This document shows positions 43,747 to 64,000 of a stretch of DNA of 64,000 nucleotides, piece by piece (the first letter of the stretch is position 1; every line of letters starts with the position of its first letter). The DNA comes from Alteromonas sp. CI.11.F.A3 (GTDB lineage: Bacteria; Pseudomonadota; Gammaproteobacteria; Enterobacterales; Alteromonadaceae). A program made the translations under genes and the position numbers. A model generated the notes under the pieces. The model had not been told where the DNA came from, ran no database searches, and saw only the letters and a program-made list of their open reading frames with translations. The stretch lies in assembly GCF_032925565.1 (NCBI RefSeq), contig NZ_CP136708.1, positions 682,001 to 746,000 on the forward strand, given 5' to 3'.

Positions 43747-45153
43747 ATGAAACCAGTAGTACTTGCAGGCGGCACCGGAAGCCGCTTATGGCCAAAATCA
43801 CGAGCGGCGTTACCTAAACAGTTTTTGTCGCTCACATCCGATAACACCATGTTGCAAGACACTATTGTTCGTTTGAATGGTACTAAAGCCCAAAGCCCCA
43901 TTTTCATATGTAATGATGCACACCGATTTCTAGTTGCAGAGCAACTACGTCAAAAAGACATTCAGCATGGCGGTATTTTACTGGAGCCAGTTGGCCGAAA
44001 TACTGCACCAGCTATTGCACTAGCAGCGTTGCATGCAACGATGAATGGTGAAGATCCTGTTTTACTCGTACTAGCAGCCGACCATTTAATCAAAGACGAA
44101 CCCGCATTTCATTCTGCAATTGAAAAAGCAGAAAAATTAGCAGGGCAAGGTAAGTTGGTGACGTTTGGTATAGTGCCAGATCAACCACACACAGGCTATG
44201 GCTACATTAAAGCAGGAAGTGGATTGGCAGACGGGTTTGAAGTTGCTGAGTTTGTTGAGAAACCTGCGCTTGAAACTGCAAAAGGGTATGTCGATTCTGG
44301 TGACTATTACTGGAATAGTGGCATGTTTATGTTTAAAGCTAGCAGATATTTACAAGAGCTTGAGAAATACAGCCCTGAAATGCTAGATGTCTGTAAACGC
44401 GCCATTGACACTGAAATCCCAGACCTAGATTTTATTCGCGTCGATCATGATATTTTTGCTACCTGCCCAGATGACTCTATCGATTATGCTGTAATGGAAA
44501 AAACTGATAGTGCTGCCATGGTTCCACTTGATGCCCAGTGGAGTGATGTAGGTAGCTGGACTTCGTTGTGGGAAACAGCGGAAAAAGACGAAAATGGCAA
44601 CGTTTCTGTTGGTGATACTATTTTAGAAAATACTAAAAATAGCTATGTGAACGCAGAGCAACGTCTTGTATCTGTCATTGGTCTGGAAGACGTTATTGTG
44701 GTTGAAACCAAAGATGCGGTGATGGTCGCTCATAAAGACGATGCTCAGAGTATCAAGAACGTGGTAAACAAACTAAAAGCTGAAAAACGCCCTGAATTTC
44801 AGTTCCATCGTGAAGTATTTCGCCCTTGGGGCAGTTACGATTCAATTGATAATGGGGCTCGTTTCCAAGTTAAGCGAATTACTGTTAAGCCTGGCGAAAA
44901 ACTGTCGGTTCAAATGCACCATCACCGCGCTGAACACTGGATCGTGGTATCGGGCAGTGCCAATGTAACCATAGATGACAAAACTACATTAGTCACCGAG
45001 AACCAATCGGTTTACATTCCTATAGGGGCTGTTCACGCTCTAGAAAATCCGGGTAAAATCCAACTGGAGCTTATTGAAGTGCAGTCAGGCGCCTATTTAG
45101 GCGAAGATGACATAGTACGCTTTTCTGATAGATATGGGCGTGTTGCTAAATAA
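43747..45153 (+). CDS. manC: Mannose-1-phosphate guanylyltransferase / mannose-6-phosphate isomerase
   Basis: The 468-residue product is bifunctional. The N-terminal nucleotidyltransferase shows [16 protein letters not shown] and LPKQFL (about residues 4-27) and [10 protein letters not shown]. The C-terminal type II phosphomannose isomerase cupin (about residues 355-468) shows [34 protein letters not shown] and [13 protein letters not shown]. It makes GDP-mannose, the precursor used by the gmd product at the far end of this locus. It opens the polysaccharide region and is followed by its own terminator, so it is probably expressed separately. The symbol cpsB or algA is also used. Confidence 0.96.
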
Positions 45154-57256: not shown

Positions 57257-59653
57257 ATGCAGTTTTGGCAATCAATTGATGAGGCAAGAGCGCTAGTTAA
57301 AGATGGTGACATCGAAGCAGCAAAGCAAACAGTTCTAAAGGCCTCAGAACTCGCAGAAGCTTGCACAATAAACAAAGCAAAAAAGCTAGCGTTTCTAGAG
57401 CATTTTCGTTTTTTGTATGATTTAAAAACAGAAATCGCTTTAGAGGAATACAGAGAGAGCAAAGTTAAAGCTGAAGCGGGCATCGACCTCGACCAATACG
57501 TTACGCAAGTAGGGGGGGGAACCTCTCTTGTTACATGTTGCATGAATAGAAATGAGAATCTTGTAAAAGCGTTGCCTTCTTGGATTGCTTGTACCGATAT
57601 AAACGAAATAATTATTGTTGACTGGTCTAGTGATGAACCAGTATTTGATTATCTGAAATCTCACGGAATTGAAGATAGCAGAATTAAAGTTATTCGCGTA
57701 AACAATCAACCTCGTTGGATATTATCTTACGCTTTCAATATTGGTTTTAGGGCTGCGTCGTACAACAAGATATTAAAAACTGACGCTGATATTGTTGTTT
57801 ACCCAGAATTTTTTGCAAACAATGTATTGAGCGAAAATACCTTCACCGCGGGAGATTGGCGTATTGCTGAACCTGGACAAGAGCACATAAATGGTTTTTT
57901 CTACGTTCATCGCGATGACCTGATGAAAATTAAGGGGTTCAACGAATACATTACAACATATGGCTGGGATGATGATGACATCTATCACCGCTTATCGGAA
58001 TCAGGAACACGCAGAAAAGCCGTAGACGTAAAAACGATATACCATATTCCCCACGATGACAGTTTGAGAGTTGGCGGCAGTGGACCAACGGAAAATCGAG
58101 ACTTCTTGGCGGAACTTCATTCAACACCGCGTTTTAAAATTCACACAAACAGGCACATCGCTAACATAATGCCGGTGTGGAACAAAGACCGGATTTTCTT
58201 GCCCTTTAAAATTCAATATATTGAAAATGGCCTTATGACGCTTCAGCAGACGGGCGAAAGCATTCACTATGTCCCTGCCCATATTCGCAATCAAGCTGAG
58301 TATTTAGCCGAATTGGAGTTAACCTCGTGGGTAGCAGGCTTACGTACTTTTGACTTAACACCACAAAAACTGAGTAAGGTACTTAAGAGCAAACCACAAC
58401 ACCTTGTTAACATATTAGATGTTGAAATTGCTTTATACAATGATGAAAACGTATACGAATACATGAGCAATTATGTAGCGTTATACATTCATCCAGATAG
58501 GGTAAAGAAAGAGCCAAAAAATATAAGAGTATTTTTAAAAGCACTGGCTGATAAGCTGCAAGCACTTAACTGTGGCTTTGTTGTGCAATCTGATGCACCT
58601 AGAGATGTGTCTTCAGCTCTTCCAAAAACGAGTAACACGTATTTTGTGCCTGGGTGGCGAAATATAGGACAGAAAGTAGAGATCTCCTTTGCTGATTTAT
58701 CTATAGAGACGGTACTTGAACACAAAGGTTGTATTGCTATTCAACCTAGCAGTATTGATTTTTCTGATTTATCAAGCCAGATATTTGGCGCTAAGGGGTT
58801 ACACCCTGATTGCAATAAGTTTTTTGTAGACGCACAGCACGGATTAGGAAATAGACTGCGCGCTATTGGTAGTGCCGCAGCCATAGCAAAAGCGACAGGA
58901 AAAGAGCTTGTGATAGTTTGGGAGCCAGACCATCACTGCGAATGTAGATTTTCTGATTTGTTCGATTATGAGGGCGAAGTAATTGAAAAGTCGTTTTTAG
59001 AACAAGCTAAGAAAGATGGTGTTGTTTTCAACTATATGGAAATTGAAGAAGGCGCAGAAAAAGATAAGCCTATAGTTGTTAAGCCAACCAAGTACGTTTA
59101 CGCCCGTGCTGCTTATACATTTGTACACGAAGCCAGCCATTGGGAAGCTGAAAACGAGTTTATAAAGGCATTGAAACCGTCTAAACAGGTGTTAGATTTA
59201 ATCGCACCTTTCAACGTAGACGGCCATATAGCAGCGCACATTAGGATGGAAGCGGGGGCAGGCCTTGACCACAATACTTACGATTCTGTAGAGAACTGGA
59301 CACAGGAAGGCCACGACCAATTGCATTTTTGGCGCGAAAAAAGCCACTATTCGGCTTTTATAAAACGAATAGACAAATTAATTGAAGAAGATAGCAGTTT
59401 GAAGCTATTTGTAGCGACCGATCTACAAGAAACCTACGATATTTTTGAGCAATATTATGGTGACCGATTGGTTTATTTAAAGAGAAATGTATTTGATCGC
59501 TCAAAAGAGCAAATAATTTATGCGCTTGCCGACGTGCTGTTACTTAGCAAATGTAAAAAGTTGCTAGGCAGTACGTGGAGTTCCTTCAGTGAAGCGGCAA
59601 TGCGGTTGTCAAATACATATTCAGAAATAGAAATGAGTGGAAGGGATTTTTAA
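57257..59653 (+). CDS. Fusion of a GT2-type glycosyltransferase and a fucosyltransferase (NodZ/FUT8)-like domain
   Basis: The 798-residue product has a short helical start, then a GT-A domain at about residues 88-300 (LVTCCMNRNENLVKALPSW, IIIVDWSSDEPVFDYL, ILKTDADIVVYPEFF with D-x-D, and YGWDDDDIYHRLSESG, a galactosyltransferase-like motif). A middle part (300-515) is unrecognised. From about residue 522 the C-terminal domain (FFVDAQHGLGNRLRAIGSA, HIAAHIRMEAGAG, LFVATDLQETYDIF) resembles the NodZ/alpha-1,6-fucosyltransferase and O-fucosyltransferase fold. GDP-fucose could come from the manC-gmd route whose genes flank the locus. A gggaag site precedes the ATG. Confidence 0.83.
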   Translation: MQFWQSIDEARALVKDGDIEAAKQTVLKASELAEACTINKAKKLAFLEHFRFLYDLKTEIALEEYRESKVKAEAGIDLDQYVTQVGGGTSLVTCCMNRNENLVKALPSWIACTDINEIIIVDWSSDEPVFDYLKSHGIEDSRIKVIRVNNQPRWILSYAFNIGFRAASYNKILKTDADIVVYPEFFANNVLSENTFTAGDWRIAEPGQEHINGFFYVHRDDLMKIKGFNEYITTYGWDDDDIYHRLSESGTRRKAVDVKTIYHIPHDDSLRVGGSGPTENRDFLAELHSTPRFKIHTNRHIANIMPVWNKDRIFLPFKIQYIENGLMTLQQTGESIHYVPAHIRNQAEYLAELELTSWVAGLRTFDLTPQKLSKVLKSKPQHLVNILDVEIALYNDENVYEYMSNYVALYIHPDRVKKEPKNIRVFLKALADKLQALNCGFVVQSDAPRDVSSALPKTSNTYFVPGWRNIGQKVEISFADLSIETVLEHKGCIAIQPSSIDFSDLSSQIFGAKGLHPDCNKFFVDAQHGLGNRLRAIGSAAAIAKATGKELVIVWEPDHHCECRFSDLFDYEGEVIEKSFLEQAKKDGVVFNYMEIEEGAEKDKPIVVKPTKYVYARAAYTFVHEASHWEAENEFIKALKPSKQVLDLIAPFNVDGHIAAHIRMEAGAGLDHNTYDSVENWTQEGHDQLHFWREKSHYSAFIKRIDKLIEEDSSLKLFVATDLQETYDIFEQYYGDRLVYLKRNVFDRSKEQIIYALADVLLLSKCKKLLGSTWSSFSEAAMRLSNTYSEIEMSGRDF

Positions 59654-60391
59654 ATGTCACTTGAATTTAAAGCTATCACACCTGTAATAAGTCTTTCAGG
59701 AAGTGTCGCCGTAGTGGGCAACTCTCCTAAAATTCTTGGAAAAGGTCTTGGGCAAGAAATAGATACGCATGATGATGTAATCCGATTTAATGGTGCTGTT
59801 ATTTCCAATTATGTAAATGATGTCGGCTCAAAAACGACTATCGTTTTTGTTGGAATAGATCTCGCCTATTTATTTACTGACCCTTACAAACGACCGAAAC
59901 AATCTGATGAGGAAAATCAGGAGATAAGAGTTTTTAATGCACGAAAAGTTGTTGAACTTTTTCCAAGTGTAAAGTTTGTAAGCTTTGATCCTAGTAACGA
60001 AGAAAGAAATAATGCAAATAAGCAATATTTGTCAGCAATGCATCTCAAAAATGGTGGAGCTAAATACATACACTATTTTGCAGAAGAAGGCCCCGCGTCT
60101 GCGATGTATTATCATACTGCAAATAAAGATCTTGAGGGATTAGGGTTAGAGTCGCGCCTTAGCTTTGGTGGACCGAGAACTGGATTTAAAACAATTTTAC
60201 GTCTTGTCTTGAGTGGGGTTAAGCCTAAGTTGTATGGTTTTGATATAGATACATCATTGGAGTTCGCTAACCACTATTATGATGATGTCACTAATGAGAA
60301 AATTAGCGAGTATAAGCCGCATGATATTCAGGGAGAGATGAGAGCTCTTGTTGAAATGCATTCAAAATCATTAATTAATATAGTGTGTTAA
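59654..60391 (+). CDS. GT29 sialyltransferase-like protein with all four sialylmotifs
   Basis: The 245-residue product shows the four motifs that define the mostly eukaryotic GT29 family. Sialylmotif L spans residues 18-46 (VAVVGNSPKILGKG, EIDTHDDVIRFN). Motif S spans about residues 170-199 (GGPRTGFKTILRLVLSG, then KLYGFD). Motif III is HYYD (residues 207-210), and motif VS is His223-x4-Glu228. In the family these bind CMP-sialic acid and the acceptor. There is no signal peptide or membrane anchor, as expected for a cytosolic bacterial enzyme. The next genes encode an aldolase, a cytidylyltransferase and a phosphatase, so the donor may be a CMP-ulosonic acid made by them. The gene starts directly after the upstream stop. 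Confidence 0.85.
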   Translation: MSLEFKAITPVISLSGSVAVVGNSPKILGKGLGQEIDTHDDVIRFNGAVISNYVNDVGSKTTIVFVGIDLAYLFTDPYKRPKQSDEENQEIRVFNARKVVELFPSVKFVSFDPSNEERNNANKQYLSAMHLKNGGAKYIHYFAEEGPASAMYYHTANKDLEGLGLESRLSFGGPRTGFKTILRLVLSGVKPKLYGFDIDTSLEFANHYYDDVTNEKISEYKPHDIQGEMRALVEMHSKSLINIVC

Positions 60392-60396
60392 GTGTT

Positions 60397-61995
60397 ATGA
60401 AAATTTTAGATTGTACATTAAGAGACGGCGGTTATTACAACAGCTGGGATTTTGCAACCGACAAGGTCAATGAATACCTTGTAGCGATGGATGCTGCTGG
60501 TGTTGATATTGTAGAGCTGGGGTTACGGTCAACAATTAATAAGGGCTTCAAAGGCGCAGCAGCGTACAGCACAGATACATATATAAATTCTCTAGAAATT
60601 CCCGATAGTCTTGCAGTTGGTGTAATGATAAATGCGGCCGAACTAGTTACAGAAAATGGTATTGATACGGTGTTAGCTGAATTATTTCCGCTAAGTAAAG
60701 AAAAGTCCCGTGTAGATGTTGTTAGAATTGCCTGCCATACACATGAGTTTGTAAAAGCTCTCCCTGCGGCAAAATGGCTTAAATCTAAGGGCTATGTTGT
60801 GGGCTTTAATTTGATGCAGATAGCAGACCGCTCTCGCGAAGAGGTAGAAGCGCTTGCCGCAGAAGCAAGTAAATACGATATTGATGCTTTGTACTTCGCT
60901 GACTCGATGGGAAGTATGGATCCCGCACATTGCATGAAAATTATTGAGTGGTTAAGAAGCAGTTGGAAAGGTGAACTAGGGATTCATACTCATGACAACA
61001 TGGGTAAGGCTCTTCAAAATACATTATCGGCTTTGGATAATGGAGTTACATGGTTGGACGCAACCGTTACAGGAATGGGCCGTGGGCCCGGAAACGCAAG
61101 GACTGAAGAGTTGGTCATAGAGGTTGCTGCACGTCGGAACTCTGCCATTAACATGGTTCCGCTTATGAGCATAATTCGTAGCTACTTTCAGCCATTAAAG
61201 AACTTGTGTGGTTGGGGATCGAATCCTTATTACTACTTATCGGGTAAATATGGTATCCATCCTACATACGTACAGGAGATGATGAGCGATAACAGGTTTA
61301 GTGAAGAAGATATTCTCTCTGTGATTGCATTGCTAAAAGAACAAGGCGGTAAAAAATTTAATGCAGATACATTGCTTATGGCAAGGGATTCTGTAAAGGG
61401 CGCAATGACGGGCGATTGGAATCCGACCACATTGTTCGAAGGTAAAGACGTTTTATTATTAGGCACTGGGAGTGGGGTTGGAGAGCACAAGGAAGCTATA
61501 GAAACATTTATTAGAGAAAAAAAACCTGTTGTTGCAGCGCTTAATACGCAGTCTGCGATTGATAGTGATTTAATCGATGTTAGGTTCGCGTGTCACCCAG
61601 TTAGAATGCTCGCGGATTCTTCTCGCCATGCAAAACTTCCTCAGCCTTTAATAGCGCCTACCGCGAGCCTATCACCAGCTATTTTAGAAACACTTTCGCA
61701 TAAAGCTATACATAATTTTGGTTTGGAAATTGATAAAAACGGTTTCGAGTTTGGCGAGTATGGATGTAAATCACCGACCTCTCTTGTTATGGCTTATGCT
61801 TTTGCTGCTTTAGCAAGTGGTCGAGCAAACCGCATTCTTTTAGCAGGATTTGACGGTTACGAAAGTGGTGACCCGCGAAATGAAGAGATGAACAATGTTG
61901 TTAAGACATTCCAAAGTGCAAACGGAGCGGTTGACCTAATAGCCGTTACACCAACACGCTATGATGTTGAAAAATTAAGCATATACGGAATGTAA
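60397..61995 (+). CDS. DRE-TIM pyruvate aldolase-like protein with a DUF115/GT29-like C-terminal domain
   Basis: From the ATG at 60397 the product has 532 residues; a longer in-frame reading begins at 60385 and overlaps the previous gene. The N-terminal 280 residues resemble 4-hydroxy-2-oxovalerate aldolases of the DRE-TIM family: MKILDCTLRDGGYYN with the metal-binding Asp and the catalytic Arg, VELGLRS, YFADSMGSM, GIHTHDNMGKAL with the two metal His, and ATVTGMGRGPGNAR. The C-terminal part (about residues 350-532) shows VLLLGTGSGVGEHKEAI and SLVMAYAFAALASGRANRI followed by LLAGFDGY, similar in layout to DUF115/sialyltransferase-type folds. It could make a keto-sugar acid by aldol addition of pyruvate; this is inference. 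Confidence 0.82.
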   Translation: MKILDCTLRDGGYYNSWDFATDKVNEYLVAMDAAGVDIVELGLRSTINKGFKGAAAYSTDTYINSLEIPDSLAVGVMINAAELVTENGIDTVLAELFPLSKEKSRVDVVRIACHTHEFVKALPAAKWLKSKGYVVGFNLMQIADRSREEVEALAAEASKYDIDALYFADSMGSMDPAHCMKIIEWLRSSWKGELGIHTHDNMGKALQNTLSALDNGVTWLDATVTGMGRGPGNARTEELVIEVAARRNSAINMVPLMSIIRSYFQPLKNLCGWGSNPYYYLSGKYGIHPTYVQEMMSDNRFSEEDILSVIALLKEQGGKKFNADTLLMARDSVKGAMTGDWNPTTLFEGKDVLLLGTGSGVGEHKEAIETFIREKKPVVAALNTQSAIDSDLIDVRFACHPVRMLADSSRHAKLPQPLIAPTASLSPAILETLSHKAIHNFGLEIDKNGFEFGEYGCKSPTSLVMAYAFAALASGRANRILLAGFDGYESGDPRNEEMNNVVKTFQSANGAVDLIAVTPTRYDVEKLSIYGM

Positions 61996-61997
61996 TA

Positions 61998-62690
61998 ATG
62001 ATGAATAAGGTTACGTGTTTTCTGCCCTGTCGACGCGGAAGTCAGCGGGTAGCAAAAAAGAACATCAAACCATTCGCGGGGTTTAATTTCGGGCTAATAG
62101 AAGTAAAGCTCAAACAACTTTTAGAAACGCCCAATATTGATGAGGTAGTGCTCTCTACAAATGATGCTGAAATTTTAGCTTATGTAGAAAGGTTTAATAC
62201 TAAAAATCTTCGCATTCATTGCCGCGCGGATGAACTTTCAAGTAGTGATACGAGCACTGATGAACTAGTTGCTCATGCTCTGGATCTTATTCCAGATGGC
62301 CACATTTTATGGACCCATGTCACTTCTCCATTTATTAATTCTGAGATTTATAGTGACATCATTGAAAAATATAAAATGGTATTAGAGTCAGGTAATGACT
62401 CCCTCATGACTACAACAAAAATCCACGGATTTTTATGGAAAAATGGTGAGCCCTTAAATTACTGTCGTGAGACAGAAAAGTGGCCGAGGACGCAAACAAT
62501 AGACCCTGTTGATGAAGTGAATAGCGGCGCTTTTCTTGCCTCTAGTAGAATCTATAAAGAACTTGGAGATCGTATAGGTAATAAGCCCTATCTCTACAAT
62601 CTAGACCGGTTGACTTCTCATGATATAGATTGGCCAGAAGACTTTGTCATTGCAGAGTGTATGGTTAAAGAGGGAATACTCCCACTATGA
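61998..62690 (+). CDS. Acylneuraminate/Kdo-type cytidylyltransferase
   Basis: The 230-residue product belongs to the NeuA/KdsB-like CMP-sugar synthetases. The CTP-binding loop is seen as LPCRRGSQRVAKKNI (about residues 9-23). Further parts are VVLSTNDAEILAY, CRADELSSSDTSTDE and WTHVTSPFI. It would activate a nonulosonic or octulosonic acid as its CMP form. It lies two bases after the aldolase stop and overlaps the phosphatase gene by four bases (ATGA), so the three are translationally linked. Which sugar is used cannot be told from sequence; the family includes enzymes for Kdo, Neu5Ac, legionaminic and pseudaminic acid. An alternative start is the second ATG at 62001. Confidence 0.9.
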   Translation: MMNKVTCFLPCRRGSQRVAKKNIKPFAGFNFGLIEVKLKQLLETPNIDEVVLSTNDAEILAYVERFNTKNLRIHCRADELSSSDTSTDELVAHALDLIPDGHILWTHVTSPFINSEIYSDIIEKYKMVLESGNDSLMTTTKIHGFLWKNGEPLNYCRETEKWPRTQTIDPVDEVNSGAFLASSRIYKELGDRIGNKPYLYNLDRLTSHDIDWPEDFVIAECMVKEGILPL

Positions 62691-63343
62691 AAAATCGGCT
62701 GAGCGAATATAAAACACTAATCTTTGATTGTGATGGGGTTATCCTTAATTCTAATAGGGTTAAAACACAAGCATTTTTTGCAGCGTCAAAAAAATATGGC
62801 GATAAACCAGCTCAGGCCTTGGTTGACTATCACATAGAGAATGGTGGTATCTCACGATTCAAGAAGTTCGAATATCTTTTTACCAATATTTTAGAGCGGA
62901 CTTTTACGGAGTTTGAACTTAATAGTGTTTTAACGGACTATGCTGAAAGAGTTAAAAATGCACTTTTAGAATGCGAAATAGCACAAGGTCTCAAGCAATT
63001 AAGGCAACTGACTCATTCAAGCAAATGGTTAATTGCATCTGGTGGCGCGCAAGCTGAGTTGAGAGAAGTTTTCCAAAAACGTAATATTGACGGTTATTTT
63101 GATGCGGGCATTTTTGGAAGCCCAACAGCTAAGGACGACATAGTTCAAGAACAACTAGCTAATAACAATATCGAAGCGCCAGTGTTATTTTTGGGCGATA
63201 GCAAATATGATCACGTTGTTGCTGACAAATTTAACTTTGACTTTGTTTTTATTACGAAGTGGAGTGAATTTGCAGATTTAAATAGTTATGCAGATGAGCA
63301 TGGTCTAGAAAAAGTCGAAACTTTGGGAGACTTGGCAATCTGA
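62687..63343 (+). CDS. HAD-family phosphatase
   Basis: The 218-residue product has the HAD catalytic motif LIFDCDGVILNSN (Asp-x-Asp), motif II as LIASGGAQAEL, and motif IV as FLGDSKYDHVVA. The helical cap between residues 20 and 85 makes it a beta-phosphoglucomutase/phosphoglycolate phosphatase-like member. By position with the cytidylyltransferase and the aldolase it may remove phosphate from a sugar-acid phosphate, the role KdsC and NeuD-type phosphatases play in other pathways. This is inference. It ends about 100 bases before gmd. Confidence 0.88.
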   Translation: MKNRLSEYKTLIFDCDGVILNSNRVKTQAFFAASKKYGDKPAQALVDYHIENGGISRFKKFEYLFTNILERTFTEFELNSVLTDYAERVKNALLECEIAQGLKQLRQLTHSSKWLIASGGAQAELREVFQKRNIDGYFDAGIFGSPTAKDDIVQEQLANNNIEAPVLFLGDSKYDHVVADKFNFDFVFITKWSEFADLNSYADEHGLEKVETLGDLAI

Positions 63344-63446
63344 TGAGCACCAAGTCTAGATAAGCATCATTTGATTAATCGTCATGATTTAAAGTGAATT
63401 CTCTGGTGGATTCGCATTAATATTGTACTAAATTATAGGAATGCTA

Positions 63447-64000
63447 GTGAAAAAAGCACTTATTACCGGGGTCACCGGCCAGGATGGCTCTTATTTAGCC
63501 GAGTTTTTGTTAGAAAAGGGATACGAAGTTCACGGTATCAAGCGTCGTGCTTCACTGTTTAACACAGAGCGTGTTGATCACATTTATGAAGATCCACACG
63601 TAGAAAACGCTAACTTTATCCTTCACTATGGCGACTTAACAGATTCTTCGAACTTAATTCGCATTATGCAAGAAGTGCAGCCAGACGAGGTATATAATCT
63701 AGGCGCACAATCGCACGTAGCGGTATCTTTCGAAGCACCCGAATATACAGCCGATGTAGATGCAATGGGCACGCTACGTTTGTTGGAAGCTATTCGTTTC
63801 CTAGGCCTTGAAAAGAAAACGAAATTCTATCAAGCATCAACGTCTGAACTTTACGGTGAAGTGCAGGAAATTCCGCAAAAAGAAACCACGCCATTTCACC
63901 CTCGCTCGCCATATGCAGTAGCTAAAATGTACGCTTACTGGATTGCGGTTAATTACCGCGAGTCCTACGGTATTTATGCATGTAACGGTATTTTGTTTAA
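63447..64000 (+). CDS. gmd: GDP-mannose 4,6-dehydratase, N-terminal part
   Basis: The gene leaves the right edge; 184 codons are present. The start is taken as GTG at 63447 because AGGA lies six bases before it; an in-frame ATG at 63441 is also possible but overlaps that site. The NADP-binding motif is [18 protein letters not shown], and [33 protein letters not shown] and [12 protein letters not shown] (with the catalytic Tyr-x3-Lys) follow. It converts GDP-mannose to GDP-4-keto-6-deoxymannose, the precursor of GDP-fucose, GDP-rhamnose and others. The 97 bases before it hold no evident gene; a promoter may lie there. The GDP-mannose made by the manC product would supply it. Confidence 0.97.

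What the first reader, a model, noticed from the sequence alone, without database searches (positions are those of the whole stretch)
59654..63343. Candidate new CMP-ulosonic acid cassette: GT29 sialyltransferase-like protein, aldolase fusion, cytidylyltransferase and HAD phosphatase
Four tightly spaced genes (overlaps of one to four bases or gaps of a few bases) encode a GT29-like protein with all four sialylmotifs, a DRE-TIM aldolase-like protein, a NeuA/KdsB-type cytidylyltransferase and a HAD phosphatase. Classical pathways use a PEP-dependent synthase (NeuB/KdsA type) for the C-C bond; here an aldolase that would use pyruvate stands in that place. Bacterial sialyltransferases usually belong to other families (GT42, GT52, GT80 and so on). 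The order fits synthesis (aldolase), dephosphorylation (HAD), activation (cytidylyltransferase) and transfer (GT29) of a sugar acid. Substrates are inferred only.
Basis: partly seen in the sequence, partly recalled or inferred. Interest (0 to 1): 0.82.

Follow-up and report, generated by a model that had tools for sequence, protein, structure and literature searches.

The report
Aldolase-based CMP-sugar-acid cassette with sialyltransferase
A marine bacterium, probably an Alteromonas, carries a compact gene set that most likely builds, activates and attaches a sialic-acid-like sugar acid using an aldolase in place of the usual synthase; three of the four genes form a widespread, apparently undescribed cassette, and the fourth is a rare bacterial relative of animal sialyltransferases.

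Summary
In detail: a GT29 protein, a two-domain aldolase, a cytidylyltransferase and a HAD phosphatase lie head to tail at 59654-63343 in a surface-polysaccharide island. The 'four-gene cassette' reading needs correcting. In 91 loci examined the aldolase lies with a HAD (85) and a cytidylyltransferase (87; both in 84), in several phyla. A GT29-like neighbour is rare (5 of 91), but adjoins the aldolase each time, in 5 separate places of its tree. The cytidylyltransferase is NeuA/PseF-like or KdsB-like and has switched repeatedly; the one KdsB-like member tested passes two of NCBI's five Kdo-cytidylyltransferase cut-offs, so a 3-deoxy-2-ulosonic acid is the likely product. New here: the aldolase's last 190 residues have the MptE/Maf/GT42 sialyltransferase fold. 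NeuB and KdsA exist elsewhere in the genome; the NeuB genes lie 2.9 Mb away, near a Maf-type gene. Bacterial GT29 itself is published, also from Alteromonas. No activity, substrate or sugar was measured. Verdict: a real, interesting variant of CMP-ulosonate biosynthesis; the pyruvate chemistry and the sugar remain inferred.

The parts
59654..60391 (+). GT29 sialyltransferase-family protein, 245 aa (motif L about 59705-59797, S about 60167-60250, III at 60272-60283, VS at 60320-60337; motif names by recall)
   Evidence: PF00777 E=4.1e-24; motif residues invariant in 31 sequences; 10 relatives (two named, both bacteria) plus 1 mammalian protein; 30 plus the mammalian one
60385..61995 (+). two-domain aldolase (likely true start ATG 60397, 532 aa)
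   Evidence: PF00682 E=1.8e-29; 4364 proteins at E<=0.001 among 7993 scored, best 120 listed; AlphaFold2 model mean pLDDT 89.8, pTM 0.66
60397..61401 (+). N-terminal DRE-TIM aldolase domain; R13/D14 at 60421-60426, H201-H203 at 60985-60993, H292 at 61258-61260 (residue numbers from GTG 60385)
61417..61995 (+). C-terminal MptE/Maf/GT42-fold domain
61998..62690 (+). CMP-sugar cytidylyltransferase (NeuA/PseF-like, PF02348)
   Evidence: 46.7 bits against a cut-off of 22.6; best NCBIfam model PseF 56.2 bits, below its 205.7 cut-off
62687..63343 (+). HAD-IA phosphatase
   Evidence: PF13419 E=2.7e-10; TIGR01549 26.8 bits over its 23.3 cut-off; relatives within 6 kb of the aldolase in 85 of 91 loci
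57257..59653 (+). GT2/Glyco_transf_7C glycosyltransferase, 798 aa, directly upstream, likely same operon; very weak NodZ-like stretch in the C-terminal half
   Evidence: PF02709 E=9.1e-9, PF00535 E=4.9e-7, NodZ E=0.13; first two again
63441..63998 (+). start of gmd (GDP-mannose 4,6-dehydratase), next gene; runs past the window end
   Evidence: TIGR01472 E=1.9e-103 on the 186 residues in the window (346.3 bits, cut-off 415 for the whole protein)

Best explanation
The locus makes and transfers a CMP-activated 3-deoxy-2-ulosonic acid for a surface polysaccharide. The metal-dependent aldolase domain joins pyruvate to an aldose phosphate, giving a phosphorylated 3-deoxyulosonic acid. The HAD removes the phosphate, the cytidylyltransferase makes the CMP-sugar, and the GT29 protein transfers it, perhaps to a galactose- and fucose-containing glycan (a guess from the neighbouring genes). 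This parallels KdsA-KdsC-KdsB with the PEP-dependent synthase replaced by an aldolase. The C-terminal sialyltransferase-fold domain of the aldolase most likely binds the CMP-sugar, as a feedback sensor or as a second transferase. Shown by computation: domain assignments, folds of both aldolase domains, conserved metal-site residues, co-occurrence. Inferred: every substrate, the order of steps, the role of the C-terminal domain.
Against: No enzyme was assayed; no sugar from these organisms was identified. The aldolase misses the 4-hydroxy-2-oxovalerate aldolase cut-offs (109.3 of 229; 98.6 of 286). The His that acts in DmpG (recalled) aligns with Tyr17, and its Tyr with His292 (4lrs alignment), so the chemistry may differ; 3dxi has Pro at the His292 place. 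The tested KdsB-like member misses three Kdo models (TIGR00466 130.5 of 155.2; NF003948 140.4 of 281; NF003950 187.5 of 234), and the window's own cytidylyltransferase misses the PseF cut-off (56.2 of 205.7). An HpcH/HpaI-type aldolase, recalled as another pyruvate-aldolase family, stands in 6 of 91 loci, unexplained if the fused aldolase already does that step. The GT29-like matches in L077, L114 and L060 rest almost wholly on the motif-L stretch of long proteins; L060 is below the PF00777 cut-off (19.7 of 23). 5 of the 11 GT29-bearing genomes have neither NeuB nor the aldolase in the stretch fetched (two of them on contigs under 10 kb).
Confidence: 0.6

Rival explanations
1. GT29 uses CMP-pseudaminic or legionaminic-type acid made by the NeuB genes elsewhere in the genome, and the aldolase, cytidylyltransferase and HAD make something else used by a neighbouring transferase.
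For: Two NeuB genes with cytidylyltransferase-like ORFs are present at 3.64-3.65 Mb. The closest named aldolase relative (L061, Alteromonas profundi, 79% identity) has no GT29 match beside its cassette but a 366-aa ORF without Pfam match at E<=0.01.
Against: The NeuB loci lie beside a flagellin-like ORF (by eye) and near a Maf-type ORF, a ready consumer. GT29-like neighbours of the aldolase recur in Halomonas, Amphritea, a Planctomycetota MAG and G347, three of them weak matches.
Confidence: 0.2
2. The C-terminal sialyltransferase-fold domain of the aldolase is itself the transferase for the cassette's product, and GT29 is an accessory transferase.
Against: It has about 190 residues; the CstII and Maf chains have 248 and 632. 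No profile-profile support against GT29 (E=0.08). The cassette occurs beside many different ORF families, unexpected if it carried its own transferase.
Confidence: 0.25
3. The aldolase makes or modifies a non-ulosonic acid (a branched sugar or a phosphonate-like acid) and the cytidylyltransferase makes a different CMP or CDP conjugate.
For: DRE-TIM enzymes with cytidylyltransferases are known in phosphonate pathways (recalled). A single-domain relative sits with a HAD but no cytidylyltransferase match in a different setting (L055).
Against: No PEP mutase family match near the locus; the two own-genome PF13714 matches are at 1.19 and 1.63 Mb. The KdsB-like partner tested passes two Kdo subfamily cut-offs. 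GT29-like neighbours recur.
Confidence: 0.12

Closest known systems
KdsA-KdsC-KdsB route to CMP-Kdo
   Same: C-C bond formation, phosphatase, cytidylyltransferase; about half of the related cassettes hold a KdsB-like enzyme
   Different: a DRE-TIM aldolase with an extra domain stands in for the PEP-dependent KdsA; the phosphatase is HAD-IA; an ordinary KdsA exists separately in the genome
NeuB-type nonulosonic acid pathways (Neu, Leg, Pse)
   Same: NeuA/PseF-like cytidylyltransferase; sialyltransferase-family transferase
   Different: no NeuB at the locus; NeuB on the stretch held around the aldolase in 3 of 91 loci
4-hydroxy-2-oxovalerate aldolases (DmpG/AmnG) and 3dxi (BVU_2661 N-terminal domain)
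   Different: below the family cut-offs; RDGGYY motif, Tyr17 and His292 in place of His and Tyr of the known family by the 4lrs alignment
Bacterial GT29 proteins (PMC5811610; a GT29-GT107 protein in E. coli K6, PMC13171606; passages seen)
   Same: sialylmotifs L, S, III, VS; no motif cysteines (the window protein has one Cys, its last residue)
   Different: here next to an aldolase cassette; the word aldolase is in neither paper's main text
Maf/MptE-like and GT42 transferases
   Same: fold of the aldolase's C-terminal domain
   Different: fused to an aldolase; no PF01973 match for the window protein

Membership tests
GT29 (PF00777) | family score above the curated cut-off | tested here: met
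   85.9 bits against 23
GT29 (PF00777) | sialylmotifs L, S, III, VS with the VS His and Glu | tested here: met
   invariant residues in 31 aligned sequences; motif names and places recalled
GT29 (PF00777) | GT-A variant sialyltransferase fold | not tested
GT29 (PF00777) | transfer from a CMP-ulosonic acid | not testable with these tools
   needs an assay
4-hydroxy-2-oxovalerate aldolase | curated family cut-off | tested here: not met
   98.6 of 286 and 109.3 of 229 bits
HMGL-like / DRE-TIM superfamily | PF00682 match and conserved metal ligands | tested here: met
   103.4 bits against 29; D14, H201, H203 in 89 of 89; ligand role recalled
NeuB/KdsA-type ulosonate pathway | PEP-dependent synthase at the locus | tested here: not met
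   whole-genome matches only at 3.10 Mb (KdsA) and 3.64-3.65 Mb (NeuB); none in 735000-754900
CMP-sugar cytidylyltransferase (PF02348) | curated cut-off | tested here: met
   46.7 bits against 22.6
PseF (TIGR03584) | equivalog cut-off | tested here: not met
   56.2 of 205.7 bits
MptE-like (PF01973), aldolase C-terminal domain | curated cut-off | tested here: not met
   no PF01973 row for the window protein at E<=1; 5 of 13 relatives match at E<=1, best 1.3e-4; the own-genome search gave one other ORF only
Maf / GT42, aldolase C-terminal domain | fold | tested here: met
Maf / GT42, aldolase C-terminal domain | catalytic residues | tested here: inconclusive
   no residue-level alignment to GT42 or Maf was obtained; only residues conserved within the family are known

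The most novel reading that the evidence does not exclude
A widespread, PEP-independent route to CMP-3-deoxyulosonic acids, in which the committing aldolase is fused to a sialyltransferase-fold domain that senses or uses the CMP-sugar, feeds rare bacterial GT29 sialyltransferases. If so, the sugar acids in many marine glycans come from neither NeuB nor KdsA.
Probability: 0.45. Interest if true: 0.82.

Novelty: new variant of a known kind. Interest (0 to 1): 0.62.

Why it matters
CMP-activated ulosonic acids are, by common knowledge, made with PEP-dependent synthases (NeuB, KdsA), and surveys of sialic-acid-like sugars look for those genes. A cassette found in Gammaproteobacteria (most of the loci listed), Alphaproteobacteria, Cyanobacteria, Bacilli and Actinomycetes that uses an aldolase instead would be invisible to such surveys, would add a new source of sugar acids, and would give a defined donor pathway for bacterial GT29 enzymes, a group from which eukaryotic sialyltransferases have been proposed to descend (PMC5811610, passages).

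Tried and rejected
Four-gene unit: rejected, GT29-like genes are next to the aldolase in 5 of 91 loci. C-terminal domain as a GT29 relative by sequence: not supported by profile comparison (E=0.08). Structural search with the whole fusion said nothing on the C-terminus because aldolase-type folds filled the list, so that domain was folded alone. A GT29 search of the eight genomes behind L061, L063, L064, L075, L090, L107, L113 and L117 gave nothing. The Neptunomonas and Rheinheimera UJ51 strains named were not reached; searches of 31 genomes of the genus of the Rheinheimera baltica genome and 116 of the family of the Neptuniibacter genome gave 2 and 3 GT29-like matches. Rows P0122 (GT29) and P0084 (aldolase), both named Neptunomonas sp., give the same longest-contig length 39476; likely one contig, not verified. 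Promoter and terminator scan: 25 found against 27.1 expected, and 11 against 9.0.

Literature: 10 searches listed no paper that I recognised as describing this aldolase cassette. Only open-licence papers are held, and I saw search listings only, except passages of PMC5811610, PMC9676051 and PMC13171606.

Limits and corrections. The first NeuB profile held one wrong seed, a PseG-like ORF; it was rebuilt from two own-genome NeuB proteins and the search repeated, with the same three near-aldolase and three near-GT29 loci. The aldolase, HAD and cytidylyltransferase profiles were built from ORFs of the same loci, so the counts describe these loci and are no independent test. The 80 named loci were found by the patterns DGGYYNxW and D[AV]LYFADS, so the invariance of Y17, Y18 and N19 is partly selected. 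The window and L060 entered because of their GT29; without them GT29-like neighbours are 3 of 89. L097 has a weak GT29-like ORF three genes after the aldolase (E=1.2e-5) that misses the threshold. One of the six class genomes with GT29 (G347) is below the family cut-off. L068 is in the 91 but not in the tree of 90.
Full report
What is there. The window lies at 682001-746000 of a 4.66-Mb single-contig genome. G129 and G244, listed as the same genus, have matches on contigs with the lengths of named Alteromonas profundi and A. lipolytica records, so the host is probably an Alteromonas; this is inferred. The finding lies in what looks like a polysaccharide island after the ribosomal-protein genes: GC is mostly 41-47% up to 44 kb and 37-41% beyond. 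The island starts with a mannose-1-phosphate guanylyltransferase-like ORF at 43747 (recognised by eye) and holds FkbM and GT2 genes, then the four genes, then gmd. The ORF after gmd looks like a GDP-fucose synthase (by eye).

GT29. The 245-aa protein scores 85.9 bits on PF00777 and matches solved beta-galactoside alpha-2,6-sialyltransferase 1 chains over motif L (E 2.6e-8 to 3.4e-8). A protein search found 10 relatives (two named, both bacteria) and one mammalian protein; a profile search 31 rows in all. Motif residues are invariant in the 31-sequence alignment. The family is rare: 6 of 369 genomes drawn from the class have a match, 5 over the cut-off. Bacterial GT29, also from Alteromonas and Idiomarina, was reported in 2018 (PMC5811610, passages).

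What travels together. A scan of genome contigs found 364 relatives among 418 candidate stretches; the best 80 were kept. With ten further loci and the window, 91 loci were examined: a HAD within 6 kb in 85, a cytidylyltransferase in 87, both in 84. Of the 73 with at least 3 kb on each side, 70 have both; the other three are L115 (no HAD), L123 (HAD 9 kb away) and L055 (no cytidylyltransferase; single-domain aldolase). NeuB is on the stretch held, up to 10 kb each side, in 3 of 91 (L051, L123, L129). The two cytidylyltransferase kinds switch 17 times on a quick aldolase tree (39 NeuA/PseF-like and 40 KdsB-like rows, 11 unlabelled), more clustered than in any of 200 shuffles (mean 26, lowest 20) but far from one origin each. 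The one KdsB-like member tested passes two Kdo subfamily cut-offs and misses three other Kdo models, TIGR00466 among them. I read this as one class of product, a 3-deoxy-2-ulosonic acid, that either enzyme can activate. An alternative is that the sugar differs between loci.

GT29 and the cassette. GT29-like ORFs occur in 5 of 91 loci, each immediately beside the aldolase (0 to 31 bases): the window, Halomonas urumqiensis (225 aa), Amphritea atlantica (1559 aa), a Planctomycetota MAG (909 aa) and G347 (887 aa). The last three match almost only over motif L, and G347's is below the PF00777 cut-off. They need 5 changes on the tree. Leaving out the window and G347, which entered because of GT29, it is 3 of 89. 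With 6 of 369 genomes carrying GT29 and about 20 kb per locus in about 4 Mb, chance would give about 0.007 (own arithmetic); allowing for both genes preferring polysaccharide islands raises this, perhaps to a few tenths (a guess). In the other direction, 11 genomes with GT29-like genes were found (6 of 369, 2 of 31, 3 of 116): 3 have the aldolase cassette adjacent (G000, G347, and G699, judged the same contig as L077 by its length of 232965 and the match position), 3 have NeuB within 6 kb (L057, L059, L149), 5 have neither in the stretch fetched, two of these on contigs under 10 kb.

Other sources in this genome. Two NeuB genes at 3.64-3.65 Mb lie beside a flagellin-like ORF (by eye) and cytidylyltransferase-like ORFs, with a 1125-aa Maf-type ORF nearby at 3.66 Mb. 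KdsA is at 3.10 Mb. The host thus has ordinary routes; the cassette is extra.

Mechanism, graded. Shown by computation: families, folds, conserved metal-site residues, co-occurrence. Likely: a CMP-ulosonate product. Inferred: pyruvate as donor, a phosphorylated aldose as acceptor, transfer by GT29, CMP-sugar binding by the C-terminal domain. An HpcH/HpaI-type aldolase in 6 of 91 loci is unexplained.

Novelty. The searches named in Tried and rejected listed no paper that I recognised as describing this cassette, within a library of open-licence papers only. I class it as a new variant of CMP-ulosonate biosynthesis.

Noticed in passing
L070:8365-9966 and 17 further ORFs, in 17 loci: A protein family (437-1227 aa) directly upstream of the aldolase in 14 of these 17 loci, with recurring RPYHYFYD, DGxT and PGV/I-x-H stretches in 12 aligned members. 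Of two members scanned, L070 has no Pfam or NCBIfam match and L084 an N-terminal DUF6270; possibly an unclassified glycosyltransferase.
   Followed up: partly
L060, L067, L078, L136, L137, L049: An HpcH/HpaI-type aldolase stands in the same cassette beside the fused aldolase in 6 of 91 loci; the L136 one was scanned.
   Followed up: partly
L089, L098, L099, L101, L102 (Marinobacter): The cassette is interleaved with two ORF families whose scanned members (L098, L099) match the lipopolysaccharide kinase family PF06293, suggesting that the sugar belongs to the LPS core there.
   Followed up: partly
window 57257-59653: A 798-aa GT2/Glyco_transf_7C protein with a very weak NodZ-like stretch (E=0.13) lies just before GT29, with gmd after the cassette: possibly galactosyl-, fucosyl- and sialyltransferase-like genes in one bacterial run.
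   Followed up: partly
L151 (own genome, 3636000-3655900) and L153: Two NeuB gene sets in opposite orientation beside a flagellin-like ORF (by eye), and a 1125-aa Maf-type ORF close by: probably a flagellin glycosylation island.
   Followed up: partly
L055 (G082): A single-domain relative of the aldolase with a HAD but no cytidylyltransferase match, near a dihydrodipicolinate-synthase-like ORF (by eye); another pathway may use the same aldolase type.
   Followed up: no
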